Assembly: GCA_949879795.1 (NCBI GenBank)
Contig: CATLBR010000001.1
Span: 124,001 to 188,000 of the forward strand
Origin: an uncultured Hungatella sp.
GTDB lineage: Bacteria; Bacillota; Clostridia; Lachnospirales; Lachnospiraceae
Direction: 5' to 3'
Length of the DNA stretch: 64,000 nt
The translations under genes were made by a program, and so were the position numbers. Shown piece after piece: positions 43,471-64,000 of this stretch. The number at the start of each line of letters is the position of its first letter. Within the stretch, counting starts at the first letter, position 1. The notes under the pieces were generated by a model. The model did not search any database. It was given only the letters and a program-made list of their open reading frames with translations, and was not told the DNA's origin.

Positions 43471-43568
43471 AAGGAGGCTGCCGCGAAATTCGGAAATTTC
43501 ACAGTAATGAAGCGGACGTCAGGCCTGCCGTGTATTGTGGAGTTCCGCCGTTTTGCGGCAGCCTCCTT
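43471..43568. repeat. 14-bp perfect inverted repeat bracketing a 70-base loop
   Basis: AAGGAGGCTGCCGC at 43471-43484 is the exact complement of GCGGCAGCCTCCTT at 43555-43568. The loop can fold further (GAAATTCGGAAATTTC at 43485-43500). The outer arm on the 5' side contains an AGGAGG sequence. It lies between the chemoreceptor and the fusion gene and may form a structured leader or an extended terminator. Confidence 0.6.
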
Positions 43569-43599
43569 TACGTATAAGAATAAGGAGGCACGGGATTTT

Positions 43600-45405: not shown

Positions 45406-45621
45406 AAGTGTTGGGGGATGGATAGTCAGGGTTGTTTCGGCGGATGTCTTGTTGCTGGCGGCAATTTAAAATGGGCATATGTGGTTACGTTGACATGGCA
45501 TCTGTGAGCAGTAAGTGTGCCCGAATTCATAGATGAGACAATACGAAAGAAGAATAAGAGTGGAAATCTTATATAAAGTGTTGTAAAATATGTAGGGTGA
45601 GGGTAAATAGAAAGGGGTATC

Positions 45622-46671: not shown

Positions 46672-47233
46672 TCGTATAATAAGCACCGGAAGTTCAAACT
46701 ATTATACTACGGTCACCTCGGCAGTCCCCGGAAACGAACAGGTAATCTTTGTAAATTCATTTCATGAAATGAAGAAGGCAGAGGATGTGGGGCAATATTC
46801 TATATATGAAATTGCGGACTGGTTTTTGAATAAAAGAAGTATGACTCAAAAAAAAATGCAGAAGCTGTGTTATTATGCTCAAGCATGGTGCTATGCATTA
46901 AAAAATAAACGATTAATCAGAACAGATTTTCAGGCATGGATACATGGGCCGGTTTCTCCCGCATTGTATGAGAAATTTAAAAGTTTTGGATATGATACGA
47001 TCAAATTTACCGGTATTTATAATTGTAAGATTGACAGAGAAGATATAAGTCTGCTGGAGGATGTCTGGGAAACTTATGGGGATCAGACCGGCAATTCTTT
47101 GGAGGCGCTTACTCACCGGGAATTGCCTTGGATTGAAGCCAGAAGGGGATATGCCGAAAATGAAAGGTGTACGGTGGCTATTTCACCGGAAACCATGAAA
47201 AAGTACTATAAATCTATCTATACGGGGGAATGA
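46643..47233 (+). CDS. Panacea-domain (SocA/DUF4065-like) antitoxin
   Basis: 196 residues. After a 50-residue basic/Ser-rich N-terminal extension, the Panacea domain (PF13274) begins: SIYEIADWFLNKRSMTQKKM, LCYYAQAWCYALKNKRLI and AWIHGPVSPALYEKFKSFG, then LPWIEARRGYAENERCTVAIS. Proteins of this family act as antitoxins for many kinds of toxin or as ClpXP adaptors (SocA). ATG 46643 is chosen for the AGGAGGG just before it. The gene lies inside the end of the proteinase gene and 17 bases upstream of a small unknown gene that may be the toxin. A link between a Clp-fold protease and this adaptor-type domain is attractive but inferred. Confidence 0.85.
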   Translation: MNETVNSRRNRIISTGSSNYYTTVTSAVPGNEQVIFVNSFHEMKKAEDVGQYSIYEIADWFLNKRSMTQKKMQKLCYYAQAWCYALKNKRLIRTDFQAWIHGPVSPALYEKFKSFGYDTIKFTGIYNCKIDREDISLLEDVWETYGDQTGNSLEALTHRELPWIEARRGYAENERCTVAISPETMKKYYKSIYTGE

Positions 47234-50133: not shown

Positions 50134-50207
50134 GATTATTACCTCTTCAGTAGATTAATTGAAAGCATTATAGCATATTACGACATATTATCCAAGTATA
50201 AGTCCGG

Positions 50208-51209
50208 TTATTTGTAGGATATTTCAAAATCAATTAGAAGAGACTCGAAATTCTTGACCAAATAACTATATTGGAGTGGGTGGGATTTTTTTAAAAGCTG
50301 ATATCGGTTACTGCCATCGGTTTCCAGGTGTACCCCAAAGCCACAGTACATACACCCATTGCGAGAATAGCCCATGTCATATAATTTTGAAATTCTGACG
50401 GAAAACCGTTCTATGTATTCCAGGATATCCTCATCTGTCCAAAAAGAAAGAGGCTTGCATTGATTATCTTTACGTACATGAAAGACATTACAGCCATATT
50501 CAAGCCAATCTTTTTCTCGTTGATAGCTTTCAGAAGCAAGGATGCCTAAAATGGCGCACTCCATGCCCAATTCTCTTGCTTTTCGTTTCAGAGGCTCCTT
50601 TTTTAGTTTGTCACAGCATTTGTCTGAGATGGGTAATTCTTTATACTTGCTGTACTTTTTGAAATTACGGTTGATGTATTCCAGGGAATTGTTCCTGGTC
50701 TTTTCTGTGATCGTGTGCTGGTAGGTGCGTATTGCGTTGGAGATTCGTTTGGAATACATGGGATACCCATAATGTTCTACTACTTTTTTAAAGGTCCATA
50801 TTTCTCCGTGGACATCTTTCGGGATGACAGTGATGATGTTTGTATGGTTTTCTTCTTGCTCCCATCGGATATGTTCCAGGGTCTCTGGGTATTCGTTGGT
50901 CGTATTCGCGAAAATATGGAGGATATCCGGATAGATACCTTTGGCTATGTGGGAGAGTACCGTGGAATCTTTCCCGCCGGAGTAAGAGATATAGACTTTA
51001 TCCAGGCCAAATTCCCTGACTGCCTCTTTGATCAAAGTTCGGGTTTGGATAATTTTGGATTCCAGGTTCATGCTTCGCATGGATTCCAGAATGATACGGC
51101 GGCCGGTCAGAAATACAGCATGTTTTTGACCACATTTATTACAGTATCTGTGGTCTTGGGGGTAGGTGTTGTCAATGGTGAGTTCGATCTCACATGTCTT
51201 ACATATCAT
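50208..51209 (-). CDS. PAPS-reductase-like PP-loop protein with N-terminal zinc ribbon
   Basis: 333 residues. A four-cysteine ribbon (C3, C6, C23, C26) opens the protein, then an ATP-pyrophosphatase PP-loop SGGKDS at 77-82 of the phosphoadenosine-phosphosulfate reductase family. A later GCMYCGFGV provides a second cysteine pair, which could hold an Fe-S cluster as in DndC. ATG 51209 is chosen for the GGAGGAAAA just before it; an upstream extension of the frame covers the promoter palindrome. It is divergent from the regulator-dndCDEA operon and distinct from dndC itself (long, no zinc ribbon). It may be an accessory sulfur-transfer or nucleotide-activating enzyme of the same system, or an independent defence gene. 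Confidence 0.82.
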   Translation of the reverse strand: MICKTCEIELTIDNTYPQDHRYCNKCGQKHAVFLTGRRIILESMRSMNLESKIIQTRTLIKEAVREFGLDKVYISYSGGKDSTVLSHIAKGIYPDILHIFANTTNEYPETLEHIRWEQEENHTNIITVIPKDVHGEIWTFKKVVEHYGYPMYSKRISNAIRTYQHTITEKTRNNSLEYINRNFKKYSKYKELPISDKCCDKLKKEPLKRKARELGMECAILGILASESYQREKDWLEYGCNVFHVRKDNQCKPLSFWTDEDILEYIERFSVRISKLYDMGYSRNGCMYCGFGVHLETDGSNRYQLLKKSHPLQYSYLVKNFESLLIDFEISYK

Positions 51210-51239
51210 AATTGTTTTCCTCCGGCTTCTTTTTATGAA

Positions 51240-51287
51240 ACTAACAATATATTTGTATCTATTATAATATACAAATATTTCGTTAGT
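51240..51287. promoter_or_regulatory. large dyad over the promoter of the PAPS-reductase-like gene
   Basis: An inverted repeat with outer ACTAAC/GTTAGT arms and inner TTTGTAT (51252-51258)/ATACAAA (51269-51275). On the minus strand it covers a promoter: TTGACT (51290-51285), 18 bases, TATAAT (51266-51261). Half-sites match the second dyad at 51313-51327, so one repressor could bind both. Confidence 0.6.
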
Positions 51288-51312
51288 CAACTTCAAAAAT
51301 ACAAAATTTTGT

Positions 51313-51327
51313 TGTATAATATACAAT
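51313..51327. promoter_or_regulatory. 15-bp operator over the dnd operon promoter
   Basis: TTGTATA-A-TATACAA, perfect arms around one base. It contains the likely -10 box TATAAT of the rightward promoter (weak -35 TTCAAA 18 bases upstream). The nearby XRE-family protein is the expected ligand, giving autorepression. Confidence 0.6.
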
Positions 51328-51361: not shown

Positions 51362-51697
51362 ATGCAGGTCGGTAAGCGTTTGGCGGATTTTAGAAAGAAA
51401 AATGGTTATACTCAGGAAAAATTGGCGAAAAAACTCAATGTTTCTCAGCAAGTTATCAGTAATATTGAGAGAAATATGACCGTACCGGACATTAATTTTT
51501 TGAAAGGGGCGGCAGATCTATATGATGTGTCCATAGATGAATTGATCGGAAGAGATTTTTCCGGTGATAAGGGAGACAGCTATGAACATAAGATTATGAG
51601 TATATTGGAAAAAATGGACGATAGAGGAAGGGAACTGAGCTTAGGACTGGTCAGCAAGGTGGCTCAGTATCAGGGTAGTGATGATGGCAATGAATAG
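51362..51697 (+). CDS. XRE-family helix-turn-helix regulator
   Basis: About 111 residues. A Cro/C1-type DNA-binding domain fills the first 65 residues (RLADFRKKNGYTQEKLAKKL, VSQQVISNIERNMTVPDI, LYDVSIDELIG), followed by a short helical tail likely used for dimer formation. GGAGAG lies just before the second ATG, so the start is placed there; an ATG 12 bases upstream is possible. Its stop lies inside the start region of dndC, so it is the first gene of the dnd operon. It probably takes the regulatory place of DndB, which is absent, acting on the two dyads upstream. Confidence 0.88.
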   Translation: MQVGKRLADFRKKNGYTQEKLAKKLNVSQQVISNIERNMTVPDINFLKGAADLYDVSIDELIGRDFSGDKGDSYEHKIMSILEKMDDRGRELSLGLVSKVAQYQGSDDGNE

Positions 51698-53075
51698 TTA
51701 TTTTAATGAAAATACGCTGGACGAGCTGATAGAGGAGATTAAATTTGTATATCAGTCTGATGACAGGCCGTGGGTGATTGGGTACAGTGGGGGAAAAGAT
51801 TCTACGGCCGTGGTAGAGCTGGTATATAAAATGCTTTTGTCACTGCCGGATTGGCAGAGGAACAAGAACGTGTATATTGTGTCTTCGGATACGCTTATCG
51901 AAAATCCGTTGATCAAGATCTATTTGAATAAAATGAATCGTCTGCTGGGGGAGGCGGCTGCCAGAGACGGTCTTCCCATGAAGTCTTCCATGGTAACTCC
52001 GCCGGCCAATAACTCCTTTTGGGCCAATGTCATAGGAAGGGGATTTCCTACACCCAAGATGAACGGGAAGTTCCGTTGGTGTACGGATCGTCTGAAAATT
52101 AATCCCAGCGCTGATTATATCAGGGAAGTGATCAGAAAAGAGGGGCAGGAAGTGGTGGTACTCCTGGGTGTGAGGAAGGACGAGAGCATAGCAAGGAAAA
52201 GGAGAATTGAGGGAAGAGAGCTGTCAAACAGGCTGATGAATCGTCATGAGACGATTCAGGACGCTTATGTATATAATCCTATTGTTGAATTGACGACGGA
52301 AGATGTGTGGGACGTTCTTCTCAATCTGGATGGCGGCGCTACGCCATGGGGTTCTGACAACAACGAACTGGTTAGCTTATATTCTGGGGCGGACAGTGGG
52401 GAATGTCCTTTTGCGGGGACACAGGGAGGAAACCAGACACAGAGCTGCGGCAATTCCAGATTCGGATGCTGGGTCTGTACGGTGGTGAAGGAGGATAAAT
52501 CCCTGAATGGTTTTATTAAAAGCGGTCATCGGGAACTGATCCCTTTATCCAATTTCAGAACCTGGATTATGAGTATTCGGGACAGAGATGAATATCGGGA
52601 AAAAAAGAGAAGAAATGGGACTGTCTATGAGACAAAGACAGGTGAGATGGGGTATGGGCCATTTACCTGGGAGGCAAGGCAGCTGATTCTCAAAGAGCTG
52701 ATTGAGACTCAAAAGAAGATGGGATATGAGTTGATTACTACGGAGGAATTGAAGGCTATTGATGAGATATGGGATCAGGAACTTGATTTCTCCAGAAGGA
52801 CGTTGGTGGAGTTATATGAAGAACTAACCGGCGGGAGACTGCCATGGTATCCCTACAAGGAGCCTTTGCTGGATATGGAAACAGTGGAGGAATTGGAGCG
52901 GTTAGCTGAGGAGAATGAGGTGCCTTTTGACCTGGTGAGAAATCTGATTCTCTCAGTGTATCACAATAAAAATTATTCGAATCAAAAAATTATGAAGGAA
53001 GCCATGGAGCGTCTGCTGAATCAGCAATGGCTCCATTATGATGTCTTGAAGGAGATTGAAGATGAAGATAAATAA
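51681..53075 (+). CDS. dndC: DndC, DNA phosphorothioation sulfurtransferase
   Basis: 464 residues. The PP-loop SGGKDS is at about 36-41. NKNVYIVSSDTLIENPLIKIY, FRWCTDRLKI and GVRKDES follow, and then the cysteine set SGECPFAGTQGG...CGNSRFGCWVC, which holds the [4Fe-4S] cluster. These are the hallmarks of DndC, which activates the DNA backbone for sulfur insertion together with DndD and DndE. The start could be ATG 51681 or ATG 51690; both overlap the end of the regulator gene, so translation is coupled. The length is slightly under the 500-530 of Gammaproteobacterial DndC. Confidence 0.94.
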   Translation: MMAMNSYFNENTLDELIEEIKFVYQSDDRPWVIGYSGGKDSTAVVELVYKMLLSLPDWQRNKNVYIVSSDTLIENPLIKIYLNKMNRLLGEAAARDGLPMKSSMVTPPANNSFWANVIGRGFPTPKMNGKFRWCTDRLKINPSADYIREVIRKEGQEVVVLLGVRKDESIARKRRIEGRELSNRLMNRHETIQDAYVYNPIVELTTEDVWDVLLNLDGGATPWGSDNNELVSLYSGADSGECPFAGTQGGNQTQSCGNSRFGCWVCTVVKEDKSLNGFIKSGHRELIPLSNFRTWIMSIRDRDEYREKKRRNGTVYETKTGEMGYGPFTWEARQLILKELIETQKKMGYELITTEELKAIDEIWDQELDFSRRTLVELYEELTGGRLPWYPYKEPLLDMETVEELERLAEENEVPFDLVRNLILSVYHNKNYSNQKIMKEAMERLLNQQWLHYDVLKEIEDEDK

Positions 53076-55221
53076 AATACTGTTGTATAATTTTAACTCC
53101 TTTGAGGGATTGAATGAGCTTGATTTTTCGGGTACGACACAGGACAGGAATATTGTTCTCATCGGAGGGAAAAACGGAGCGGGAAAGACTTCGCTGTTTA
53201 CGGCGATTAAGATTGCTTTATATGGTCCTTTGGCTTTCGGATATGTGGGAATCAACCCTCATTACATAGCTAAGATAAAAGATTGTATTAATTCAAAGGC
53301 ATTTCAGAAGAATAAGGTGGAGTCAAAGGTTCAGATAACCATCTCCCTGATGGTGGAGAGGGAGGTGAAAGAGTATGAGATAACCAGGGAGTGGGATTAC
53401 AGCAGACAAAAACTTATAGAAAAGTATTTTGTAAAGATGGATGGGAAATTGTTAAATGATGATGAGCTGTCCTACTTCCAAAATTATCTCCAAAGTATTG
53501 TTCCGCCGGATTTATTTGAGTTCTTTTTGTTTGACGGGGAGGAAGTGGGAAGTATTTTTTCTACCAGCGCCTATAATACCTATGTTAAAAACGCGGTGTA
53601 TACCTTATGTGGCCTGGATACCTTTGAGATTATCAGAAAATATACAGGGAGTTATATTGGGAAAGCTGTTGGCGAAGATGAGAAAAAACTTCATAGAGAG
53701 TACGAAAGTGTAAAGGAGTCCGTGGAAGCACTGGAGGTCCTTGAAAAAAAATTGGGGGAGCAGATAACACAGGAGAAAGAGGAACTGGAGCAGGTTGAGA
53801 CAGATTTAACGGAGCTGGAGACTGCTTTTAAAAAAGCAGGAGGAATTACGGAGAAGGAGAGGAAAAGGCTGGCAAAGGAGTTTGAAGAAGCAGAACGGGC
53901 AAAGGCGGAATCTACGGCAAAGCTAAAGTTGTTTGTCGAGGGGTTAATGCCATTTTATATGTTGAAGGACTTTGCCGAAGGGGTTGTCATACAGCTGGAG
54001 AAGGAGGAGCAAAGCAGGCTCTTTTACTATATACAGGAGAAATTGAACCGGGAGGATATCCGACACAGTTTTGAGGGAACCAATATTACAGAGACAGGTA
54101 TTGAGTCTTTTATCGGGAAGTTTCTTGAGCGATTTAAGCCAGGGGGATTTGTGGAGGGGGAAGAACCGCTCCATGATCTGTCCAGGGAAGATACGGCCAG
54201 GGTTCATGCTATGATTACCAGTGTTAAAGATTTTGATTCTCAGGCTATGGTTGAGACGGTATACAGGAAGCAGTGGGCTTCTGAGCGCACTTCGGAGATC
54301 AATAAAGTTTTGAGGAATGCCATGGCAGATGAGGATATGGCAGGATTTGCGGAGAGGGAAAACCGTTTACTGAAAAGAAAGGAAGAATTGGTCACAAGAC
54401 TTGGGGAGAGTCAGAGGCAGCTAAAAGAATTAGAGGAGAAGAAGACAGCGGGAATACAGCAGAGAGACAGGACGCTGCAGAGATTAAGAGAGAGTGTTCA
54501 AAATAAGCATGTTTTGGAACTGAGCGCAGGTTTGTCTCAGATGATGGGAAGATTTTTGACGGATAAGACAGAAGCTGTGAGAAGAGAGCTGGAGGCTTTG
54601 ATTGTAAAAAATCTTCAGCATATTTACCGAAAAGATAATCTGATTACCCATATTGAGATTGATGAGGATTTTGAGTTTCATCTTTACCAGGATGCTGTGT
54701 ATAGTGTGACAGAACTGGCATACTTGATACGGAATTTGGGAAGAGAGGCTTTTTCTCTGGAAATAGGAAAAAAGGGCCAGATGTTTTTGTGTGAGAAATA
54801 TGGGGTCAGCAGTCTGAAACAGCTTCAGAAGATCCTGGTGGGGGGAGAGGGACAAGAAGAAGTAGATTTATATAAAAAGATTGATATTAGCAGGCTCTCC
54901 AAAGGGGAGCGGCAGATTTTTATTTTGTCACTGTATTGGGGCATTATCAAATTGTCGGGGCAGGATATTCCCTTTATTATCGACACTCCATATGCTCGAA
55001 TCGATGCCAATCATCGAATGGAGATATCGGAAAAATTCTTTCCCAATATCAGCAGACAGGTGATTATTCTTTCTACTGACGAGGAGATTAATGATGAGTA
55101 TTATCAGATTTTGAAGCCCCATATTGCCAGGGAATTTTTATTGGTGAATGATGAGAATCAAAACAAGACTTCTATTGAACAACATTACTTTTTCTTTTTT
55201 AATGATGAGGAACAGCCATGA
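53062..55221 (+). CDS. dndD: DndD, SMC-like ATPase of DNA phosphorothioation
   Basis: 719 residues. Walker A GKNGAGKT is at 36-43. Two long coiled-coil arms follow (about 215-300 and 420-500, Glu/Lys/Leu-rich), and a C-terminal ABC half has LSKGERQIFILSLYWGI (signature) and DIPFIIDTPYARIDANHR (Walker B/D-loop). This is the DndD layout, an SMC/Rad50-type ATPase that acts with DndC and DndE on DNA. ATG 53062 is chosen because AAGGAG lies seven bases upstream; the TTG six bases before it has no such site. It overlaps dndC by 14 bases and dndE by four. Confidence 0.94.
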   Translation: MKINKILLYNFNSFEGLNELDFSGTTQDRNIVLIGGKNGAGKTSLFTAIKIALYGPLAFGYVGINPHYIAKIKDCINSKAFQKNKVESKVQITISLMVEREVKEYEITREWDYSRQKLIEKYFVKMDGKLLNDDELSYFQNYLQSIVPPDLFEFFLFDGEEVGSIFSTSAYNTYVKNAVYTLCGLDTFEIIRKYTGSYIGKAVGEDEKKLHREYESVKESVEALEVLEKKLGEQITQEKEELEQVETDLTELETAFKKAGGITEKERKRLAKEFEEAERAKAESTAKLKLFVEGLMPFYMLKDFAEGVVIQLEKEEQSRLFYYIQEKLNREDIRHSFEGTNITETGIESFIGKFLERFKPGGFVEGEEPLHDLSREDTARVHAMITSVKDFDSQAMVETVYRKQWASERTSEINKVLRNAMADEDMAGFAERENRLLKRKEELVTRLGESQRQLKELEEKKTAGIQQRDRTLQRLRESVQNKHVLELSAGLSQMMGRFLTDKTEAVRRELEALIVKNLQHIYRKDNLITHIEIDEDFEFHLYQDAVYSVTELAYLIRNLGREAFSLEIGKKGQMFLCEKYGVSSLKQLQKILVGGEGQEEVDLYKKIDISRLSKGERQIFILSLYWGIIKLSGQDIPFIIDTPYARIDANHRMEISEKFFPNISRQVIILSTDEEINDEYYQILKPHIAREFLLVNDENQNKTSIEQHYFFFFNDEEQP

Positions 55222-55598
55222 TATTTCGATTAAAAACGTCAAAGCAGACCCAGGAGATTTTTCAGCAGCTGGAGAGTAAAACGAATTATAAGCCATATAC
55301 GTTAGTAAAGCATGCCATCGCATGGTCTTTGAAGGAACATACTTCTGTGAAAGACTTTCGATCGGATTCGGAGGGGCTGGATCTGAACAGGCAGACCATA
55401 ACGGGGGATTATGAGGTGTATTTTAAGGTCCTGATAGAGGAGGTGGAGGGAAGATATCTTCCGGAGGAGGAGTATTTTCCAAAGTATGTGAAGGCTCATA
55501 TTGATCGTGGAAGCAAGCTGCTTTTTGACATGTATAAACATGCGGGAAGTGTGGATAAGTATATTTTACAGGTTTTGGGAGTGGGGGATACGGTATGA
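55218..55598 (+). CDS. dndE: DndE, DNA-binding phosphorothioation protein
   Basis: 126 residues, the expected small size. MIFRLKTSKQTQEIFQQLES at the start and LVKHAIAWSL with DFRSDSEGLDLNRQTITGDY match DndE, a tetrameric protein that binds nicked DNA and is needed for sulfur modification. The basic N-terminal surface would contact DNA. It overlaps dndD and dndA by four bases each (ATGA type), so the four proteins are closely coupled. Confidence 0.93.
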   Translation: MIFRLKTSKQTQEIFQQLESKTNYKPYTLVKHAIAWSLKEHTSVKDFRSDSEGLDLNRQTITGDYEVYFKVLIEEVEGRYLPEEEYFPKYVKAHIDRGSKLLFDMYKHAGSVDKYILQVLGVGDTV

Positions 55599-56788
55599 TC
55601 TATTTTGATAACAGTGCTACTTCTCCTATCGATGGAGAAGTGCTGGAGGCCATGCTGCCTTATCTGAGGGAGGAGTATGGGAATCCTTCCAGCAAGTATT
55701 ATGGTAAGGCGGTGAATGCCCGCAATGCGGTTGAGGAGGCCAGAGAGGCAGTAGCCAGGCTTCTTGGGGCAAGGCCGGAGGAGTTGGTGTTTACGGCCGG
55801 GGCAACGGAGAGCACGAATTTTATTATAAAAGGATATATGGATTATCGCCGGTATTATGGGGACGGGAAAAATCATATTATTACGTCAGTGGCGGAGCAT
55901 AAGGCCACACTGAATACGTGTAAGTATCTGAATGGGGAATTGTATTCTAATAATGACCCGACTATCAGCCTCTTTGGGGACAAGAAACGGGTGGACCGGG
56001 GGTATGAAGCCACTTTTGTCGGGATTACGGAGTACGGGGAGATTATGCCTGAGGCTGTGGAGGAGGCGATTCGGGATAATACGGCCATGGTTTCTGTGAT
56101 CTATGTGAATAATGAGGTGGGTACAATCAGTGATGTGGGAAAGATCGCAAAACTGTGCGGCAAGTGTGGCATAGGGATTCATTCGGATATCACCCAGGCT
56201 TTGGGTAAGATCAAGGTTGATGTCCATGGTTTGGGGCTGGATTATGCTTCCTGTTCGGCTCACAAAATCTATGGGCCTAAGGGAATCGGGGCAGCGTTTC
56301 TGAAGAGTGACGCTTATGGCATAGAGCCGATTACGGCGCTTTTACATGGGGGGGAACAGGAGTCGGGATTTCGGGGGGGAACTCTGGCTGTCCATGATAT
56401 TGTTGGGTTTGGAAAGGCAGCGGAGCTGGCGGTCAGAGATATGGACAAGAATGAGGCTTTATTAAAGAGTCTGGATGACAGGCTGGTGGGAAAGCTTCTT
56501 GGTATACCGGATATTTTTTTGACCAATGAGTCAAAAAAGAGGGTTCCGGGGATTGTGAGTATTCTTGTTAACAAAAAGGATTTTCACAATGAGCGTTTTA
56601 TTAAAAGGGTAAGTGATCAGCTTGCCATTTCTACAGGTTCTGCCTGCAGCGCGGGGGAGCCTTCTTATGTGATTGCCTCTCTGGGTAAGGCGGATAAGGT
56701 GTCGAAAGTATTAAGAATCTCCATTAACAAATTTACTACACAAGAGGAGATTGATCAGCTTGTTCAAATTTTTGCGGATCATCTATAA
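55595..56788 (+). CDS. dndA: DndA/IscS-like cysteine desulfurase
   Basis: 397 residues of the class V aminotransferase family. MIYFDNSATSPIDGEV at the start, K224 in SAHKIYGPKG for pyridoxal phosphate, and C351 in TGSACSAGEPS as the persulfide cysteine are all present. It draws sulfur from L-cysteine and hands it to DndC. The gene is the last of the four and overlaps dndE; in many dnd clusters dndA is divergent or replaced by a chromosomal IscS, so this order (C-D-E-A) is worth noting. It lies 11 bases before the helicase gene, so one transcript may cover both modification and the next genes. Confidence 0.93.
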   Translation: MIYFDNSATSPIDGEVLEAMLPYLREEYGNPSSKYYGKAVNARNAVEEAREAVARLLGARPEELVFTAGATESTNFIIKGYMDYRRYYGDGKNHIITSVAEHKATLNTCKYLNGELYSNNDPTISLFGDKKRVDRGYEATFVGITEYGEIMPEAVEEAIRDNTAMVSVIYVNNEVGTISDVGKIAKLCGKCGIGIHSDITQALGKIKVDVHGLGLDYASCSAHKIYGPKGIGAAFLKSDAYGIEPITALLHGGEQESGFRGGTLAVHDIVGFGKAAELAVRDMDKNEALLKSLDDRLVGKLLGIPDIFLTNESKKRVPGIVSILVNKKDFHNERFIKRVSDQLAISTGSACSAGEPSYVIASLGKADKVSKVLRISINKFTTQEEIDQLVQIFADHL

Positions 56789-56799
56789 GGATAACTGAT

Positions 56800-59700
56800 A
56801 TGGCAATGATGATAGATAAAAGACCTCAGTTTGAGGGAGAGAAAGTTACGTGGGACAGTTTTTCTAAAAATCTACCAAATGATGTGGTGGTGTACACTCA
56901 CAGGGAGGTTTTAGGCGGGGATGAGTGTGATTTTGCGCTGCTTATAAAGAACCGGGGGATTTTGATTGTGGAAGTGAAGGGGTGGAGCGCAAAACATATC
57001 TATGAGGTTATGAGTGATGGACAGGTGGTCTTGACAAATGATTCATCAGAGCCGGAAAAAACACAAGGGTCTCCCAGGGAGCAGGCGAGAAAATACAGGT
57101 TTCAGTGGCTGAATTTTATTCAGGACCGTCTTGGGTTCAGCCCTTTGGTACTCCATATGGTGTGTTATCCTTTTTTGTCTGAGAGGGAGTATTGGGAGAA
57201 GAGGCTGGATATTATTTCGGAGAAGGGAATTACTTTGTTCAGGGAGGACTTAAGAAATCCTGTAAAATTGGGCCAGAAGATAGATAATTGGTTTCATGTG
57301 AAAAGAGGAATTTCGTCCGTTGATTTTGATGATACCAAGATGGCATTGGTGAGGCAGGTATTGGAACCTTCTTTTCAGGGAAAGCAGGGGGAAGTAAAAG
57401 AGATTTTTGGCTCTTATTCTCTGCTGAAAGTGTTTGACAGAGAGATTAAGTCAGATCAGGATCTGGAGGAATTAACAGCCGCGTATTTTCAGGGTACAAA
57501 AATTTTTTTATTTGTCCGGGAGGAAGAAGAACTTCAAAGGCTGGGGGATAAGCTGAGGGAAGGGTTTCACAGAAGAAATATTGTGGCAGAGCATGGAAAT
57601 ATAAGATTTTCCAAAGTGGGAGAAAAGCAAAGAGCTGTTTATGAAAAGGGCAAGGGTGAATTGCGTCTTTTCAATTTTGAGGCATATTGTATAAAGGAAG
57701 ATTTTACAGATGGGGAAGATATCTGTGTGCTTGAAGGTCAGGTCAATGGGGTACAGGATAGAATTTTGAGGCGGATAGAGGGGGAGACAAACTTTAATTA
57801 CGGGCAGTTTTTGATTGAGCATACGGATATTCGAAGAAATGTGCTTGTGAGGGCCGGAGCCGGAACAGGAAAAACCTATTCGATGGTTTCGAGAATCGCC
57901 TTTTTGTGCAACAACAGAGAGGGAACGGTCTGTAATCTTGTAGAAGATGTCGCAATGGTGACCTTTACCAATGAGGCAGCGGATAATATGAAGGTAAGGC
58001 TCAAGCAGGCTTTTATGAATTATTATCTGCTCACAAGAAATAAAAGGTTTCTTCGCAAGATAGAGTCTGTAGATCTGATGCAGATTTCAACGATTCATAA
58101 GTTCGCTAAGTCGGTGATTCAAAATTTGTCTTTGGGATTTGGCGTAGGACATGATGTTGCTATTACTTCCAGCTCTTATGAAAAGGAACGGATTTATGAA
58201 AAATATTTAAATGACTATCTGGTCAGGGCGGAGGAAAAAAATCCTGATGTTGCCAGTAAACTGTGGATGCCGGTGCATAAGTTCAGAAAGATTCTGATAA
58301 ATTTCGCGAAACAGCTTTATGATAAGAGCTGTGACATAAAAACCATTCTCCCGGAGGAGATGGGAGATTTTCGTGAGATACCATTTTTTAATGAGATGAT
58401 CAATCAGGTTATCATTCCTGCTGAGAGGGAGTACCATGATGAGCTCTTGTCAAAAAATAAGATTGACCTGAAGGAGTGTATGATATTTCTTCAGCGTGCT
58501 TTGAAGGATATTGGCGCCAATAAATGGAGCATTGGCTATAAATATCTGTTTATTGATGAGTTCCAGGATACAGATGATGTTCAGATTGATTCATTTTTGA
58601 AGCTGCTGGAAAAGGCAGAAGGGTTGAAGCTGTTTCTCGTTGGAGACATTAAACAGAGTATTTATCGGTTTCGGGGCGCTACAGACAGCGCTTTTGAGAG
58701 AGTGAAAAAAGGGGGAGTTGATTGGAGTGAGTATTCACTTTCCAGAAACTATAGGACAGACGCCAAACTTTTGGAGAGCCTGGATAAATTTTTTTGTAAA
58801 ATGGGGAACAGAGGATATTTAAAGTTTGTGAAAGGTCAGGATACTTTGAAAAGCAATATTGTCGGGGGACTGGACAAAAGTCAGCTTATCAGAAAGGTGG
58901 AATATTCCGGTCGCCAAAATGGAACTTTGATGGAGGTTCTGTTTGGAGAAATTCAACATCAGAGAGATATAATTGAACATTTGAAGGCTGCCAGAACGTT
59001 GGAGCCGAAAGAAAAGATCATTGTTCTTCTGGTCAGGGAGAACTGGCAGATAGAAAAAATTTTGCTTGAATCCAGAAAAAGAGGGTGTTATATGGAGACG
59101 GAGGTTGGAGGGGATTTGTATCAATTGACTTCAACGATGGATCTGTATAAACTGGTAATGGCCCTTATGAACCCAAAGGATCCGGTATTTCTCTTTAACT
59201 TGATGAAGTCGAATTATGTTAATCTGCAGTTGGATATACAGGGGCTTCGCGGTATAGGGAAGGATCAGAAGGCAGAAATTTTGATTGGAATTTTGAATCA
59301 GTATTTTGATGAGAATCTTGGAAAAACCTGGGAAGAAGTGATAAGGGAACTTTACAGAAAACCCGTTCTGGCAGTGCTGCGTGATATTTATGAGGGCACA
59401 CAACCTTGGCAAAATTATGATCAGGGAGAGTCCGGACAAAAATTTTACAGGGCTAATTATGATCTGGTACTTGAGAAGATGATAAAGGCATATAGTGTGG
59501 ATTATTTGTCGTTGAGTGTGATTGAAAACAGCCTGCATATTAATATTCTTACTGGCCAGGAAGACTTGGCAAGAAATGTAAACAGGGAAACAGAGGATAT
59601 CAGGATTGTCTGCACGACAGTACATAAGGCGAAAGGTTTGGAATATGGGACGGTGATTCTGCCTTACTGTGACTGGAATATGGGAACTACGGATAAATCT

Positions 59701-59940
59701 CCTTTAGATGTGAATTACTCTGATCATAAGCTGTCATATGGAATAAAAATCAAGAAGTTTAAAAAAACACAAAAAGTGTACAATTCCAATTATGATGTAA
59801 AAGAGGAAAGTTCCCAAAGAATTCAGGAGGAATCCAGAGTACTGTATGTGGCTTTGACAAGGGCAATCCGCAATATTGTCTGGCTGAAAAATGCAGATGT
59901 TCATGAAGAAAATTCCTGGCAGGAATTTATGGAGGGATAG
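56800..59940 (+). CDS. NERD-nuclease/UvrD-type helicase fusion
   Basis: 1046 residues. Residues about 1-150 form a NERD (PD-(D/E)XK-like) domain with D44 in GGDECDFALL and E58-V-K60 in ILIVEVKGW. From about 330 a superfamily 1 helicase follows: Walker A RAGAGTGKT with K358, motif Ia VTFTNEAADNMK, Walker B LFIDEFQDTDDVQ (D586, E587), GDIKQSIYRFRGA, TTVHKAKGLEYGTVILP around residue 942, and a last VLYVALTRAI motif. It resembles AddA/UvrD enzymes, but with an N-terminal nuclease in place of AddA's C-terminal one. It follows dndA by 11 bases and abuts the AddB-like gene, so the two probably form a complex that processes DNA ends or phosphorothioate-lacking DNA. Confidence 0.88.
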   Translation: MAMMIDKRPQFEGEKVTWDSFSKNLPNDVVVYTHREVLGGDECDFALLIKNRGILIVEVKGWSAKHIYEVMSDGQVVLTNDSSEPEKTQGSPREQARKYRFQWLNFIQDRLGFSPLVLHMVCYPFLSEREYWEKRLDIISEKGITLFREDLRNPVKLGQKIDNWFHVKRGISSVDFDDTKMALVRQVLEPSFQGKQGEVKEIFGSYSLLKVFDREIKSDQDLEELTAAYFQGTKIFLFVREEEELQRLGDKLREGFHRRNIVAEHGNIRFSKVGEKQRAVYEKGKGELRLFNFEAYCIKEDFTDGEDICVLEGQVNGVQDRILRRIEGETNFNYGQFLIEHTDIRRNVLVRAGAGTGKTYSMVSRIAFLCNNREGTVCNLVEDVAMVTFTNEAADNMKVRLKQAFMNYYLLTRNKRFLRKIESVDLMQISTIHKFAKSVIQNLSLGFGVGHDVAITSSSYEKERIYEKYLNDYLVRAEEKNPDVASKLWMPVHKFRKILINFAKQLYDKSCDIKTILPEEMGDFREIPFFNEMINQVIIPAEREYHDELLSKNKIDLKECMIFLQRALKDIGANKWSIGYKYLFIDEFQDTDDVQIDSFLKLLEKAEGLKLFLVGDIKQSIYRFRGATDSAFERVKKGGVDWSEYSLSRNYRTDAKLLESLDKFFCKMGNRGYLKFVKGQDTLKSNIVGGLDKSQLIRKVEYSGRQNGTLMEVLFGEIQHQRDIIEHLKAARTLEPKEKIIVLLVRENWQIEKILLESRKRGCYMETEVGGDLYQLTSTMDLYKLVMALMNPKDPVFLFNLMKSNYVNLQLDIQGLRGIGKDQKAEILIGILNQYFDENLGKTWEEVIRELYRKPVLAVLRDIYEGTQPWQNYDQGESGQKFYRANYDLVLEKMIKAYSVDYLSLSVIENSLHINILTGQEDLARNVNRETEDIRIVCTTVHKAKGLEYGTVILPYCDWNMGTTDKSPLDVNYSDHKLSYGIKIKKFKKTQKVYNSNYDVKEESSQRIQEESRVLYVALTRAIRNIVWLKNADVHEENSWQEFMEG

Positions 59941-59941
59941 C

Positions 59942-62611
59942 ATGTCATTATCGATCTATACATACAGCAATCCTTATGATATCAGCAATGAGCCTTATTG
60001 GGACTCCATGAAAGACTCTGCTCATTTTTGTGTGTCTCAGACCATGGTAAATGGACTCTGGTCCGTTTATCCGGAATTGAGACATGGGCAATTGGGTACA
60101 GTAGAAGCCTTAGTGAAGACATTGTATCCTGCGTGGAATGACACAAAGACTTATATTAAACAATACGCAGCCGTTTCTAATATATTAAAAGGTCTGGAGG
60201 AGGCTCGCTATAATGGAAGTGACAGGGATAAGTGGAGGGTGCTTCAGGGACTTGGGTTTGACAAGACACATATATTGGACAGCATTCGGCTGCTTTGTGA
60301 GATGAATATTTTGTTTGGAAAGATAAAAACAAGGTATCTTACAGAGGAACAGAAATATCTGGCCGTTGTGTATCGGGAAATCCTGAAAGGAGAGTACCGG
60401 GAATTGTTTTCTTTGAAGTCTTGTTTTTCGGAAAGGGAAATAGACGGCGTGATCAGGGAAGCCCTTAAAAAGGCGGAAAATACGGTCGATTTTCGGACAA
60501 TTGTGTTTCATGGGATTCATCAGTTTACACCGGGGATTTTAAATGCTGTTGAACAGATTTCAAAGTACAGAAGGGTGGTCATGCTTTTTAATTATCAGGC
60601 CCAGTATAAGGAGATTTATCAGACATGGCTGGACGTATATTCCTGTTTTGATCTGACCATAAAGAGTCAGACAGATCATGAGTTTAGTCCCAATACCTTG
60701 CTGCAGGCAAGTTATAGAAGTAATTTGCTGGCAGATACACTTGCCAGGCTGGCTGAGGGGGAGTTGATCGAGGCAAGAGAGGAGCTGAGCGGTACAGAAA
60801 TTTTAGAGTTTGACAATATCACTGAGTTTTCCGGATATGTGGCTAAACGTTACGAGGAGGCGAAACAGAAACATGACAGGGATGAGGGCACAAAAAGATC
60901 GGTTTTATCCTATATGGGTGAGCAGTTTTATGGTGCCGAGAATTCCGTGAATGATATTTTGAAGGTGTATTTTCCGGAACAGTTTAAGGAGCGGCATTTT
61001 TTGGCGTATCCAATCGGGCATTTTTTCGTGGCTGTTACAAATATGTGGGACGCCGAGAAAGGCGGAATCAATATCCGAGATCTCAACGATGTGGCGGAGT
61101 GCCTGTACTCGGAGGTATTGCCGGAGAAGAAACCAGGAGCGTTGATGACTACTTTTCATGGAGTGAAAAGCTACTTTGATCATGAAAAGGTAAAGTCTAT
61201 CCAGGGAATCATGGAACTTCTCAGGGAGCTTTCAAGGCAGAAGCAGAGAATTGAAGCCGGAGACCGTGAGAGATCCCTGCGGAGACTGGGGTATTTTCAT
61301 GTGTCTCAGGAGGAGATAAAAGACCTGATTGAGGCTTTGGGGATATTGGAGCGGATCACTGAATTTTTCTACAGTGATTTTGAGAATGAGGAAAATGATT
61401 TCAGAAATTTTTATGAAAAGATCCGTAGATTTGTGGAAGAGCAGATTTTGCCGGGGGCAGATACAGAAGATGAGTTCAGGGCTATGATTGAGCGGCTTCT
61501 GATACGTCTGGAAGAAATGGACGATATGGATATTCCAGGTTCTTTTGACTGCCTGAAAGAAACGATGAGTTATTATCTGAAGCAGAGGAGTGAGGAAGAT
61601 AACAGCGCTCACTGGATTGTAAGAGATTTTCAGCAGATTGATGGAGATATTCTCCAGAGTTCCAATCAGGAGGGAAAGGTAGTTTACCATTTTGCCTGTG
61701 TGTCGGATACGGATATGAACATAAAGAATGAGGAACTGTTTCCCTGGCCTCTTAACACAGACTTTTTTGAAAAGGCCTATGAGCCTTTGGATTGGAGGTA
61801 TCAGGTCTACTTGAAGTCCAGAAGAGAATTTAAACATTTTAAGAGATATGCCCTGATCTATGGACTGGAGTTTAACCGATGTGATTTCAAAATCAGTTAT
61901 GTAAAGAACAGCAATGGGAAAGAGAATGAGATGTATTATCTTCTGAAATTGCTGGGAATGGAGACCAAAGAGTATTTGCACGATACCAAGCCCGATAAAG
62001 TCATTCAGTCAGTTCCCATTACCATAGACTTACAGAACAGTCAGTATACGTCTATGGACGGTTACAGAAGGAAAATATGCGCATATAAGTTTGCATTGGA
62101 GTCTATTATAGAAGGGGATACTTATTATAAGGATCATTTTTTACAAAAGAAGTATTATGAGGTGGTTTTAGTGAATAAGGTCCGCCGAAATCTTCAGGGG
62201 CAGATGAATTCCCCTGATATTCTGGACAGAGAGTTGAGGGGGGAGGCAGAACGGCTGGGGAGATATTTTAAATTTGTCATTGATTCGGAGCGAATGGATA
62301 TCATCAGCAGTGCCAGAAACTATATTAAGTCTGCTGTATTGAAAAATGGTCAGATAAAGAGGTTCCCTAAAATCGACAAAACAGATGAGGAGCGAATGAA
62401 AAAGAAAGAGATCTTTTTGCTCCTCCGGCTGGAAAATGAGGAAGGGAAAAATATATTGGATGGTAAATTTGAGATGAGCCCTGGGGAACAGCACAGGCTT
62501 TTGTCACCAGAGCTGTTGAAAAATGAGGTTTATGAGAAGAGCAGAGATTTATGGTGTCAATGGTGCGCAAACAGGGAAATTTGTCTGGAGTCTTACAAAA
62601 CCTTGGCATAA
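59942..62611 (+). CDS. AddB-like Fe-S protein, helicase-nuclease partner
   Basis: 889 residues. The C-terminus ends in C872-x2-C875-x5-C881 (WCQWCANREIC), the same spacing as the iron-sulfur cysteines at the end of AddB. The middle has the weak helicase-like fold of AddB (IVFHGIHQFTPGILNAVEQI, LLQASYRSNLLADTLARL). I see no Walker A motif and no clear PD-(D/E)XK nuclease motif, so it is likely a structural, non-ATPase subunit, like the AddB proteins that scan DNA. It starts two bases after the NERD-UvrD gene, with GGAGGG as ribosome site. An inactivated AddB beside a nuclease-bearing AddA-like protein would keep a two-subunit motor with rearranged nuclease activity. Confidence 0.75.
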   Translation: MSLSIYTYSNPYDISNEPYWDSMKDSAHFCVSQTMVNGLWSVYPELRHGQLGTVEALVKTLYPAWNDTKTYIKQYAAVSNILKGLEEARYNGSDRDKWRVLQGLGFDKTHILDSIRLLCEMNILFGKIKTRYLTEEQKYLAVVYREILKGEYRELFSLKSCFSEREIDGVIREALKKAENTVDFRTIVFHGIHQFTPGILNAVEQISKYRRVVMLFNYQAQYKEIYQTWLDVYSCFDLTIKSQTDHEFSPNTLLQASYRSNLLADTLARLAEGELIEAREELSGTEILEFDNITEFSGYVAKRYEEAKQKHDRDEGTKRSVLSYMGEQFYGAENSVNDILKVYFPEQFKERHFLAYPIGHFFVAVTNMWDAEKGGINIRDLNDVAECLYSEVLPEKKPGALMTTFHGVKSYFDHEKVKSIQGIMELLRELSRQKQRIEAGDRERSLRRLGYFHVSQEEIKDLIEALGILERITEFFYSDFENEENDFRNFYEKIRRFVEEQILPGADTEDEFRAMIERLLIRLEEMDDMDIPGSFDCLKETMSYYLKQRSEEDNSAHWIVRDFQQIDGDILQSSNQEGKVVYHFACVSDTDMNIKNEELFPWPLNTDFFEKAYEPLDWRYQVYLKSRREFKHFKRYALIYGLEFNRCDFKISYVKNSNGKENEMYYLLKLLGMETKEYLHDTKPDKVIQSVPITIDLQNSQYTSMDGYRRKICAYKFALESIIEGDTYYKDHFLQKKYYEVVLVNKVRRNLQGQMNSPDILDRELRGEAERLGRYFKFVIDSERMDIISSARNYIKSAVLKNGQIKRFPKIDKTDEERMKKKEIFLLLRLENEEGKNILDGKFEMSPGEQHRLLSPELLKNEVYEKSRDLWCQWCANREICLESYKTLA

Positions 62612-62672
62612 GTTAAGGTTGACGGAAAAGAACTTGAAGTATATACTATTTGATTATTAAAGGTGAAAAACA

Positions 62673-64000
62673 ATGGCTGCGGAACTTCAGAAAAATATGT
62701 ATGTCAGGTGCCCTTTTGACAGAGAATACCCGAGAATTCCCAGAGATTTTATAACAGGGCAGATTATAGAGACAGATACCATTGCCAATACCGTGACACT
62801 GGTATTCAGGGACCCGTTTCATTTCAGGGAATATTATGAAAGAGTTCCATCGGAACCGATTGTGTGTCAGACCCAACTGTTGAGCCGTGTCACTGCGTAT
62901 CGGGAGACAGAAGTCCTCTATAATGGAAAGAGGCATGTGGTGGTATCCGTTTCGAAGGAAGGAGACTGGTATTTTTATTATATACAGAATGGATTGACAG
63001 GGGACGATCTCCGGGTATGTGAGAGTGAAATCGTAATTCCATTTACTGCCGGGAGAGTGTCTCCTGTGGAACAACTGAGAAGGTATGAATTTCAGAATCC
63101 GGTGTGGTACCTGGGGAGGGCTGTGGTCAGCAAGACAGTAAAGATTCTGGAAAATTCTGTTTACGGATTTAAGGAGTTGGCGGGCTGCAAGATTTATCTG
63201 CTGCCTCACCAGCTTCATACAATCATGCGCTGCCTCCAGGAGGAAACTTGTCGGTATATGCTTGCGGATGAAGTGGGAATGGGAAAAACGATTGAGGCGG
63301 CAGCTGTCCTTAAAATTTATCTTCTTCACAATTCCGGGAAGAGGGCATTGGTGGCAGTTCCCGGACCGCTGCTTGAACAGTGGAAGACAGAACTGTTTTT
63401 CAAATTTGATGTGGAAGAGGGCACGGATAAGAGGAATAACCATTTATATGTGACGGCTCTGGAGCAGATAGGGAGTTACTGCGGCGAGAATTGGGATTTT
63501 GTCGTGCTGGATGAGGTACATAAACTTTTAGGAAATACCGCGGCCTATCAAAGGTGTCACAGGTTAAGCAGAAACGCGAAAAATGTGCTGCTGCTTTCTG
63601 CCACGCCAGTACAGCAGAAGGAGGAACAGTATCTGGAACTTCTCAGGCTGATTCTTCCCCAAAAGTATGACAGAGTTTCCATGGAAGCCTTTAGGGAACA
63701 GGTTGGGAAACAAAAAAAGATAACCCGATCCATGTACAATATTCTGGCAGATTTGGAAGACTTGATTGAAAGTATGGAAAAGGCAGCGGAGAAGAAGACG
63801 GCTTATGATGAGGATGATGACTGTGAATCCATTTATGAAGATATTCTGGATGGTCTGGATGGAGTCAAGGCATTTATTCATGACGAGTTCTTGGACAGGC
63901 TCTTGGAGTCTGTAGATCAGGAATGTACAGAGCAGGGAAAAGCGAAGATCCAGGAGGCTGTGATTTATATCTGTGAGAATTATCAGTTGGAGAACAAGAT
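62673..64000 (+). CDS. SNF2/RapA-like DEVH helicase, 3' end beyond the window
   Basis: The frame is open from ATG 62673 to the window edge, giving at least 442 residues. Motif I is LADEVGMGKTIEA (K205). Motif II is VVLDEVHKL (D280-H283). Motif III is LLLSATPVQQ. The preceding PHQLHTIMRCLQEE is the Q-like motif. This pattern belongs to SNF2/RapA ATPases, which move along duplex DNA. An N-terminal 170-residue domain precedes the ATPase. AAAGGTG lies before the start and 61 bases separate it from the AddB-like gene. SNF2-family proteins accompany several defence systems (DISARM, Dpd), and here it completes a run of three DNA motors next to dnd genes. Confidence 0.85.
   Translation, partial: MAAELQKNMYVRCPFDREYPRIPRDFITGQIIETDTIANTVTLVFRDPFHFREYYERVPSEPIVCQTQLLSRVTAYRETEVLYNGKRHVVVSVSKEGDWYFYYIQNGLTGDDLRVCESEIVIPFTAGRVSPVEQLRRYEFQNPVWYLGRAVVSKTVKILENSVYGFKELAGCKIYLLPHQLHTIMRCLQEETCRYMLADEVGMGKTIEAAAVLKIYLLHNSGKRALVAVPGPLLEQWKTELFFKFDVEEGTDKRNNHLYVTALEQIGSYCGENWDFVVLDEVHKLLGNTAAYQRCHRLSRNAKNVLLLSATPVQQKEEQYLELLRLILPQKYDRVSMEAFREQVGKQKKITRSMYNILADLEDLIESMEKAAEKKTAYDEDDDCESIYEDILDGLDGVKAFIHDEFLDRLLESVDQECTEQGKAKIQEAVIYICENYQLENK

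What the first reader, a model, noticed from the sequence alone, without database searches (positions are those of the whole stretch)
51362..64000. dndCDEA linked to a NERD-UvrD / AddB-like / SNF2 module instead of dndFGH: possible new phosphorothioation-dependent defence system
Seen: regulator, dndC, dndD, dndE and dndA overlap or abut, and 11 bases later a NERD-UvrD helicase, an AddB-like protein two bases further and then an SNF2-like helicase continue on the same strand. Known: Dnd systems restrict with DndFGH, and relatives use PbeABCD or SspE. None of dndB, dndF, dndG or dndH was found here. Inference: the three motor proteins are the restriction or repair arm of this Dnd cluster, with the NERD nuclease as the cutting domain. 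I do not recall a named system with this composition.
Basis: partly seen in the sequence, partly recalled or inferred. Interest (0 to 1): 0.85.

Follow-up and report, generated by a model that had tools for sequence, protein, structure and literature searches.

The report
Sulfur-DNA marking joined to Dpd effectors
A bacterium carries one long gene cluster that joins the enzymes putting sulfur into the DNA backbone to a set of DNA motors and nucleases known from a different, base-modification defence system, which suggests one restriction machine can be plugged into quite different DNA marks.

Summary
Observation confirmed. HTH-dndCDEA runs straight into a NERD-UvrD helicase, an AddB-like protein (best fold match AddB of AddAB) and an SNF2 gene. 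The window cuts the cluster short. It continues as DpdE (the SNF2 gene), DpdF, DpdG, DpdH, DpdI and an HNH nuclease: thirteen same-strand genes with gaps of at most 61 bases. No dndFGH or PbeA follows.

NERD-UvrD/AddB-like/DpdE-F-G-H-I is a conserved seven-gene module. Strong DpdH occurs in 9 of 299 same-family genomes, all with dndC on the same contig; dndC occurs in 16 of 299. The other seven dnd loci carry DndH (4), PbeA/C (2) or PbeC-like plus Orf5 (1) genes instead. Of 78 DpdH loci from public genomes, 47 have the AddB-like gene: 42 are dnd-linked on the same contig, none shows DpdJ. Nine other loci show DpdJ and no dndC.

Best reading: a phosphorothioate restriction-modification-like system whose restriction arm is the Dpd effector core plus an AddAB-like helicase-nuclease. 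I found it in no paper that my searches listed. PT chemistry, self/non-self discrimination and phage defence are inferred, not shown. One Neobacillus locus carries both this module and DndF/DndG, so exclusivity is not absolute.

The parts
51362..51697 (+). HTH (Cro/C1-type) regulator, first gene of the operon
   Evidence: PF01381 58 bits; homolog before dndC in G262 (96 bits)
51684..53075 (+). dndC, PT sulfurtransferase (divergent lineage)
   Evidence: TIGR03183 414 bits, cut-off 290; trees
53062..55221 (+). dndD, ABC/SMC-like ATPase
   Evidence: TIGR03185 353 bits, cut-off 246; PADLOC DndD 403 bits, next best PbeC 365 bits
55218..55598 (+). dndE
   Evidence: PF08870 88 bits, cut-off 25; TIGR03184 45.7 bits, below cut-off 71.85
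55595..56788 (+). dndA, cysteine desulfurase
   Evidence: PADLOC DndA 393 bits, SspA 389; TIGR03235 341 bits, below cut-off 480
56800..59940 (+). NERD nuclease fused to UvrD/RecB-like SF1 helicase
   Evidence: PF08378, PF00580, PF13361; D44, E58, K60 of a PD-(D/E)xK-type site invariant in 10 of 10 aligned (motif reading is mine)
59942..62611 (+). AddB/RecC-like partner; Fe-S-type cysteines kept, no conserved nuclease core seen
   Evidence: Foldseek best hit AddB chain 3u4q_B, E 3e-11, TM 0.43; C730, C889, C892, C898 invariant in 9 of 9; CxxCx5C in 47 of 48 rows, some the same contig twice
62673..64000 (+). dpdE, SNF2 translocase (cut by window end; whole gene C1:186673-190035, 1120 aa). Downstream on the contig: dpdF C1:190025-192502, dpdG 192503-193309, dpdH 193313-196393, dpdI 196397-197065, HNH 197080-198276; then, not counted as a part, Drt2 RT 198820-200166
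   Evidence: NF041062 383 bits, NF041063 473, NF041065 304, all below equivalog cut-offs 500/550/450; DpdG by hhalign 100%, E 1e-38; DpdI hhalign 98.9%, E 3e-17; HNH_4 47 bits

Best explanation
It is a phosphorothioate-based restriction-modification-like defence operon whose restriction arm is the effector core of the Dpd (7-deazaguanine) systems plus an AddAB/RecBCD-like helicase-nuclease. Steps. (1) DndA mobilises sulfur and DndC/D/E place phosphorothioates at a short motif in host DNA (known function of the families; not measured here). (2) DpdE (SNF2 translocase), DpdF (RecQ-like helicase), DpdG, DpdH (P-loop ATPase) and DpdI form a DNA-scanning and deciding complex that is held off by host marks (inferred). 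(3) On DNA without the mark it commits; a first nick or cut is made by the HNH protein here, by an Mrr-type enzyme in some relatives, or by NERD itself (inferred). (4) The NERD-UvrD/AddB-like pair unwinds and degrades the DNA from that point, as AddAB/RecBCD do, with NERD as the nuclease and the AddB-like subunit as a nuclease-dead partner (inferred from fold, pairing and conserved residues).
For: Thirteen genes overlap or follow one another on one strand with gaps of at most 61 bases. The seven-gene order is kept in 8 of the 9 other family genomes with full-length NERD-UvrD, the ninth being cut by a contig end. All 9 family genomes with strong DpdH have DndC on the same contig, against 16 of 299 with DndC over cut-off; hypergeometric 2.5e-13 (298 genera among 299 genomes). 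Linkage survives three arrangements: dnd before, dnd behind, dnd behind and convergent. The 7 dnd loci of the same sample without the module have DndH (4), PbeA and PbeC (2) or a PbeC-like protein plus Orf5 (1) beside dnd. Of 78 loci from named genomes 47 carry the AddB-like gene; 39 have dndC within 10 kb of DpdH and 3 more upstream on the same contig; 9 others carry DpdJ without dndC, and no locus shows both AddB-like and DpdJ. DndC of module loci lies in several far-apart lineages, and the control loci nest inside one of them. NERD and HNH active-site residues are invariant; Walker-type motifs are invariant in the DpdE, DpdF and DpdH alignments.
Against: No phenotype or PT measurement. Neobacillus drentensis locus L098 has the module, dnd, and also DndF (548 bits) and DndG (305 bits), so replacement is not absolute. 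G007 has NERD-UvrD and AddB-like but its contig ends in dpdE and no DndC was found in that genome. L105's genome has no DndC hit (its contig ends just after DpdI), and L109's dnd is on another contig, not at a contig edge. In Cyanobacteria bare operons of the DpdE-I kind exist without dnd beside them; DndC is in 119 of 148 genomes of that order, so 7 of 7 co-occurrence says nothing. Own Dpd proteins score below the equivalog cut-offs. L062 and L083 have dnd but lack the AddB-like gene and carry a shorter NERD-helicase in its place. On the DndC tree module and control labels are clustered more than shuffled ones (1 of 500 as low; 4 changes, 2 forced by starred branches), so exchange of arms is real but not rampant.
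Confidence: 0.72

Rival explanations
1. PT-sensing rather than PT-protected: as with SspE or DndI, the mark on DNA activates or licenses the effector, which acts on phage DNA or shuts the cell down, instead of shielding host DNA.
For: Such PT-sensing effectors exist (starts of the abstracts of PMC11662687 and PMC8092258 seen in listings). A DUF262/GmrSD protein with a weak SspE match (33 bits) diverges from the operon next door.
Against: No SspE match among the operon's own proteins in the lists shown (DndI was not searched for by name). dpd genes, of another chemistry, are reported to lower transformation (PMC12707154 passages), which favours protection by the mark.
Confidence: 0.15
2. Repair or processing arm: the NERD-UvrD/AddB-like pair and Dpd motors mend breaks at PT sites or oxidised PT DNA and do not restrict.
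For: AddAB/RecBCD-like architecture.
Against: NERD is a nuclease family with an intact site, HNH or Mrr enzymes ride along in many loci, and the slot is taken by restriction modules in sister loci. DpdE-I belong to a presumed restriction operon elsewhere (PMC11888242 passages).
Confidence: 0.07
3. Defence-island neighbours: separate systems that happen to be adjacent.
For: Drt2 and a DUF262 plus PAPS-reductase pair flank the operon. L098 has extra DndF/G.
Against: Order and linkage are kept in many genera and in three relative arrangements, with overlapping genes; dnd lineages differ while linkage stays.
Confidence: 0.06

Closest known systems
Dnd / DndABCDE-DndFGH
   Same: dndC, D, E, A modification genes in order; a multi-gene motor/nuclease restriction arm beside them
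   Different: DndFGH replaced by NERD-UvrD, AddB-like and DpdE-F-G-H-I; no dndB found in the own genome, though present in all 15 other dnd genomes searched (in G114 on another contig, in G262 a distant one)
Dpd (7-deazapurine in DNA) system
   Same: DpdE, F, G, H, I in the same order as on Enterobacter plasmid pPOL9A ('I' by place)
   Different: no DpdA, B, C found among the genes scanned and no DpdJ, K, D; coupled to backbone sulfur genes instead of base-modification genes
Pbe (dnd-pbeABCD) and SspE systems
   Same: alternative restriction arms that share a PT modification module; the own DndD also resembles PbeC (365 against 403 bits)
   Different: no PbeA-type helicase-nuclease and no SspE in the operon; PbeB not tested
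AddAB / RecBCD
   Same: SF1 helicase-nuclease paired with an AddB/RecC-fold subunit
   Different: nuclease is an N-terminal NERD domain; AddB-like subunit shorter, conserved nuclease core not seen; dnd-linked
BREX-related capture (BRC) system (PMC12839542, passages)
   Same: precedent of Dpd parts built into another defence system
   Different: there a TGT (DpdA-like) with BREX and HerA/FtsK parts; no DpdE-I with dnd in the passages read
AddB-like/UvrD pair beside Dpd on Paenibacillus plasmid pART37
   Same: AddB-like homolog (hhalign 96.6%) and a UvrD near DpdE-I
   Different: UvrD apparently without NERD; TGT and DpdJ/K present; no dnd among the annotated genes, a table that may be incomplete

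Membership tests
Dnd PT modification module | dndC, dndD, dndE in one operon with a cysteine desulfurase | tested here: met
   all four adjacent, DndC and DndD over curated cut-offs
Dnd PT modification module | phosphorothioate in DNA | not testable with these tools
   needs iodine cleavage or LC-MS
Dnd-DndFGH restriction system | dndF, dndG, dndH present | tested here: not met
   DndH absent from the own genome and from 9 of 9 module genomes bar a 19-bit scrap in G262; none among genes scanned past the window
Dpd system | dpdA (TGT) and dpdB/C modification genes | tested here: not met
   none among the operon genes and neighbours scanned; the own genome as a whole was not searched for DpdA
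Dpd system | dpdE, F, G, H effector genes | tested here: met
   homologous and in order, but below equivalog cut-offs for E, F, H; G by profile comparison
Dpd system | dpdJ, dpdK, dpdD | tested here: not met
   no such gene in the own cluster; DpdJ in 0 of 47 AddB-bearing loci within the fetched flanks
Pbe system | PbeA (HKD-SF2 helicase) with PbeC/D | tested here: not met
   only helicase-level PbeA matches, best 47 bits, against about 650 bits for true PbeA in control loci
AddAB/RecBCD | SF1 helicase plus AddB/RecC-fold partner encoded side by side | tested here: met
   (model pLDDT 72, TM 0.43, so the fold match is moderate)
AddAB/RecBCD | RecB-family nuclease domain at the C-terminus of the helicase | tested here: not met
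   NERD at the N-terminus; UvrD_C match runs to residue 1025 of 1046
Cas9-type HNH (HNH_4) | D-H, N, N catalytic residues at Cas9 spacing | tested here: met
   D262, H263, N277, N286 invariant in 17 of 17 rows, two of them the same contig; Cas9 HNH chains matched by sequence; Cas9 numbering recalled

The most novel reading that the evidence does not exclude
DpdE-F-G-H-I is a chemistry-agnostic restriction engine: one scanning and deciding complex that has been exchanged between backbone sulfur (Dnd), deazaguanine bases (Dpd) and, in Selenomonas and Cyanobacteria, perhaps other or distant marks, with the cutting part (NERD-UvrD/AddB, DpdJ/K, HNH, Mrr) swapped as needed. It would then sense some feature shared by protected DNA rather than one chemical group.
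Probability: 0.45. Interest if true: 0.88.

Novelty: new variant of a known kind. Interest (0 to 1): 0.78.

Why it matters
Dnd and Dpd are studied as separate systems. Finding the same five-gene effector core wired to sulfur in the backbone in one place and to a modified base in another makes a direct experiment possible: does one effector complex read two unlike marks, and which subunit adapts it? It also gives dnd loci without dndFGH, which PMC10853773 (section 17) says are common, a candidate restriction arm in Clostridia, and adds a NERD, AddAB-like machine to the PT world.

Tried and rejected
Cyanobacterial co-occurrence as support: 7 of 7 cyanobacterial DpdH genomes tested have DndC, but 119 of 148 of the order do, so dropped as evidence. 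Drt2 as a part: 543-base gap and no Drt2 match reported in the other annotated loci. DUF262 plus PAPS-reductase pair upstream as a part: opposite strand, only a fragment of the reductase seen in G262. Viral carriers: 0 of 52 pattern matches confirmed. Plasmid carriers: 10 records match DpdH; four regions were read: three show Dpd genes including DpdA/TGT and one (Nostoc) DpdE-K without DpdA in the stretch; none had dnd annotated. Class-wide survey: of 361 genomes only the own one has strong DpdH (four others at 30 bits or less), so the system is rare and no second co-occurrence test was made. Insertion site: the downstream flank lies on contigs other than the system's in G114 and G299, the upstream flank is barely conserved, so no clean empty site. 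HNH structure: the job was never accepted. No solved relative by sequence for the AddB-like profile; one marginal DnaA-like match for DpdH.

Limits and corrections of counts: the 78 loci come from two peptide patterns of a Clostridia-weighted alignment; 111 relatives were found, 80 kept, 78 distinct. Labels are by best phmmer/hmmsearch hit within 10 kb of DpdH, so genes further off are missed. Seven of the nine module genomes of the 299-set (G262, G159, G067, G297, G081, G032, G253) look like the same contigs as L057, L072, L078, L088, L065, L090, L115 by equal contig length, so the two sets overlap. In the first DndC tree display I had given five module rows other labels, which made the label changes look larger (9); with right labels it is 4, of which 2 are forced by starred branches. 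Trees are 'quick' with long branches flagged. My motif search missed 3 of 11 NERD proteins though the printed letters keep D..E-x-K. G120 has a 20-bit DpdH match that I did not count.
Full report
WHAT IS THERE. The window is C1:124001-188000 of an unnamed 2.63 Mb, 65%-complete genome. The genes listed in the finding are present and open and family scans agree with their names. I then read past the window: the fetched stretches L006/L007 reach C1:205000. The operon goes on: dpdE 1120 aa, dpdF 825, dpdG 268, dpdH 1026, dpdI 222, HNH 398, with gaps of -11, 0, 3, 3 and 14 bases, then 543 bases before a Drt2-type reverse transcriptase and after that a PTS gene and stomatin/HflK-like genes (the HflK/C name is mine, from the sequence). 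That makes thirteen genes from the regulator to HNH. G+C of the system is 42.5% against 49.8% for the first 48 kb of the window and 54.5% behind it, as expected of acquired DNA.

NAMING THE DOWNSTREAM GENES. NCBIfam gives DpdE 383 bits (model positions 38-1027 of 1048), DpdF 473 (131-694 of 813), DpdH 304 (7-912 of 1014), all below the equivalog cut-offs; PADLOC agrees. The 268-aa protein matches DpdG only weakly (15.5 bits), but its alignment of eight matches an alignment of eleven DpdG from Dpd-type and cyanobacterial loci at 100% probability, E 1e-38. The 222-aa protein sits where an unnamed 282-aa gene sits in the order dpdE-F-G-H-x-J-K-D of plasmid pPOL9A; I call that gene DpdI from its place, and the two profiles match at 98.9%, E 3e-17, over their C-terminal halves.

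THE NERD-UvrD / AddB-LIKE PAIR. The NERD domain (residues 11-123) keeps D44, E58 and K60 in 10 of 10 aligned proteins. The next gene matched no Pfam, PADLOC or NCBIfam model at E 0.01. Four cysteines at AddB-like places are invariant in 9 of 9; the motif CxxCx5C is kept in 47 of 48 rows, some of them the same contig twice, the exception being L109. I see no conserved acidic/lysine nuclease core between them, so I take it as a nuclease-dead partner; that step is my reading of the alignment. The HNH protein has D262, H263, N277, N286 invariant in 17 of 17 rows, two rows being one contig, and matches Cas9 HNH chains by sequence.

CONSERVATION AND LINKAGE. In 299 genomes of the family (298 genera), full-length NERD-UvrD is in 10. 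In 8 of the 9 others the seven-gene order NERD-UvrD, AddB-like, DpdE, F, G, H, I is there (DpdE lies in two frames in G159); the ninth, G007, ends in dpdE at the contig end and has no DndC hit. A tenth weaker match, G291, lacks the Dpd genes and dnd in its flanks. DpdH above 250 bits is in 9 of 299 (a tenth match has 20 bits), DndC over cut-off in 16 of 299, and all 9 are among the 16, on the same contig; hypergeometric 2.5e-13. dnd lies before the module (own, G262), behind it (G159, G067, G297, G081, G032) or behind and convergent (G253, G185). The other members carry dndB. An Mrr-type nuclease sits between dndA and NERD in G262.

THE SLOT. The seven DndC genomes without DpdH were read as controls. 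Four have DndH over 1880 bits with DndG/F-sized neighbours, named in L160. L159 and L161 have PbeA at 655 and 650 bits and PbeC at 268 and 257 bits. L158, from the own genus, has a PbeC-like protein and an Orf5/DUF262 protein. No module genome has DndH beyond a 19-bit scrap. A search with one DndF, DndG and DndH over the module loci found one exception, Neobacillus drentensis L098, which has DndF (548 bits) and DndG (305 bits) next to its dnd genes.

WIDER SEARCH. A scan of 84,980 genomes with the DpdH alignment gave 78 loci. I labelled genes with phmmer/hmmsearch: AddB-like plus dndC 39; AddB-like without dndC in the flank 8; dndC without AddB-like 2; DpdJ 9; neither 20. Of the 8, L055, L057 and L103 have dnd upstream on the same contig; L096 and L106 end at a contig edge and their dnd lies at the edge of another contig; L109 has dnd on another contig away from its edge; L105's genome has no DndC hit; L070 ends within DpdH and its genome was not searched. 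'Neither' holds 12 bare loci of the DpdE-I kind (11 cyanobacterial plus L132, a Tatlockia MAG; DpdE not seen in L119, L120, L123 and L132, the last three cut by contig ends), five contig fragments (L056, L059, L064, L079, L117) and three Selenomonas-type loci (L077, L087, L116). Dnd-linked carriers include Catonella, Eubacterium, Sellimonas, Papillibacter, Moorella, Desulfosporosinus, Pectinatus, Faecalicoccus, Neobacillus, an actinobacterial MAG and an alphaproteobacterial MAG; MAG binning errors are possible. Catonella (L062) and the alphaproteobacterial MAG (L083) have a shorter NERD-helicase and no AddB-like gene.

TREES. On the DndC tree (48 module rows, 7 control rows) the module rows span far-apart lineages, the own one (with G262 and L165) among the most distant, and the controls lie inside one lineage; 4 label changes are needed and 2 are forced by starred branches, fewer than in nearly all shuffles. 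The DndC of a Pbe locus (L159) and of a DndFGH locus (L164) are nearly identical (end branches 0.012 and 0.019). On the DpdH tree dnd-linked (45) and DpdJ (13) rows need 2 changes: seven Bacilli/Dethiobacter-type DpdJ loci form one clade (99) within the Firmicutes branch near dnd-linked L092, L095 and L098. Both fit exchange of whole arms, a few times rather than often; the trees are quick ones with long branches and midpoint roots.

WHAT DID NOT HELP. Cyanobacterial co-occurrence is uninformative (base rate 119 of 148). A class-wide draw of 361 genomes found no second strong DpdH: the system is rare.

LITERATURE. Full-text searches listed no paper that shows dnd with dpdE-H in one system; several lists were capped at 10 to 30 rows. 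PMC10853773: abstract, section 17 and passages read; it lists NERD, HNH and REase genes near dnd and says DndABCDE is often decoupled from DndFGH, with no 'dpd' in the held text; its supplements, which may contain such loci, could not be read. PMC12839542: passages, part of the abstract among them; a BREX/HerA/Dpd hybrid. PMC11888242: passages; dpdA-C synthesis and dpdD-K restriction operons. PMC12707154: passages; says dpd genes lowered transformation. PMC11931770: passages; PT at G*AGC/G*CTC confirmed in a Lachnospiraceae gut isolate, whose restriction genes are not stated there. PMC8569181: term search only, no hits. Three Dpd papers I asked for were not held. So 'not in print' means not found in these searches.

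VERDICT. A real, conserved, probably functional pairing of PT modification with a Dpd-type effector core and an AddAB-like NERD helicase-nuclease. Shown: gene content, order, linkage, intact catalytic residues, slot replacement with one exception. Inferred: PT chemistry, discrimination, order of events, defence.

Noticed in passing
window 48187-51326 (-): DUF262/GmrSD-type protein (PADLOC Orf5/HEC-06 about 57 bits, SspE 33 bits) and a PAPS-reductase-family protein diverging from the operon; a fragment of the reductase also lies before dndC in G262 (L048:4804-5268).
   Followed up: partly
L007:13820-15166 (C1:198820-200166): Drt2-type defence reverse transcriptase 543 bases after the HNH gene; no Drt2 match in the other annotated loci.
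   Followed up: partly
L118-L126, L128, L131, L132: Bare operons of the DpdE-F-G-H-I kind in Cyanobacteria (and one Tatlockia MAG), in the loci read set among ordinary genes, without DpdJ/K or dnd in the fetched flanks; 119 of 148 genomes of the cyanobacterial order have DndC.
   Followed up: partly
L077, L087, L116: Selenomonas-type loci: DpdE-I kind (L087 truncated) followed in L077 and L116 by a helicase, an MZB-domain protein and a UvrD- or NERD-helicase, no DndC over cut-off in the genomes; L116 has a C5-cytosine methylase nearby.
   Followed up: partly
L098:20224-23051: Neobacillus drentensis carries DndF and DndG genes next to the dnd genes of a DpdE-I module: apparently two restriction arms at one dnd locus.
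   Followed up: partly
L134:31318-36392: Paenibacillus plasmid pART37: AddB-like plus UvrD pair beside a Dpd-type cluster with a TGT and two DpdJ genes.
   Followed up: partly
L072 and L024: dpdE of Eubacterium ramulus ATCC 29099 lies in two overlapping frames, so this strain may be a poor test organism.
   Followed up: no
window 43507-47233: GFO/IDH/MocA oxidoreductase fused to a NUDIX domain, then a ClpP-like SDH-type protease and a SocA/Panacea antitoxin-like gene.
   Followed up: no
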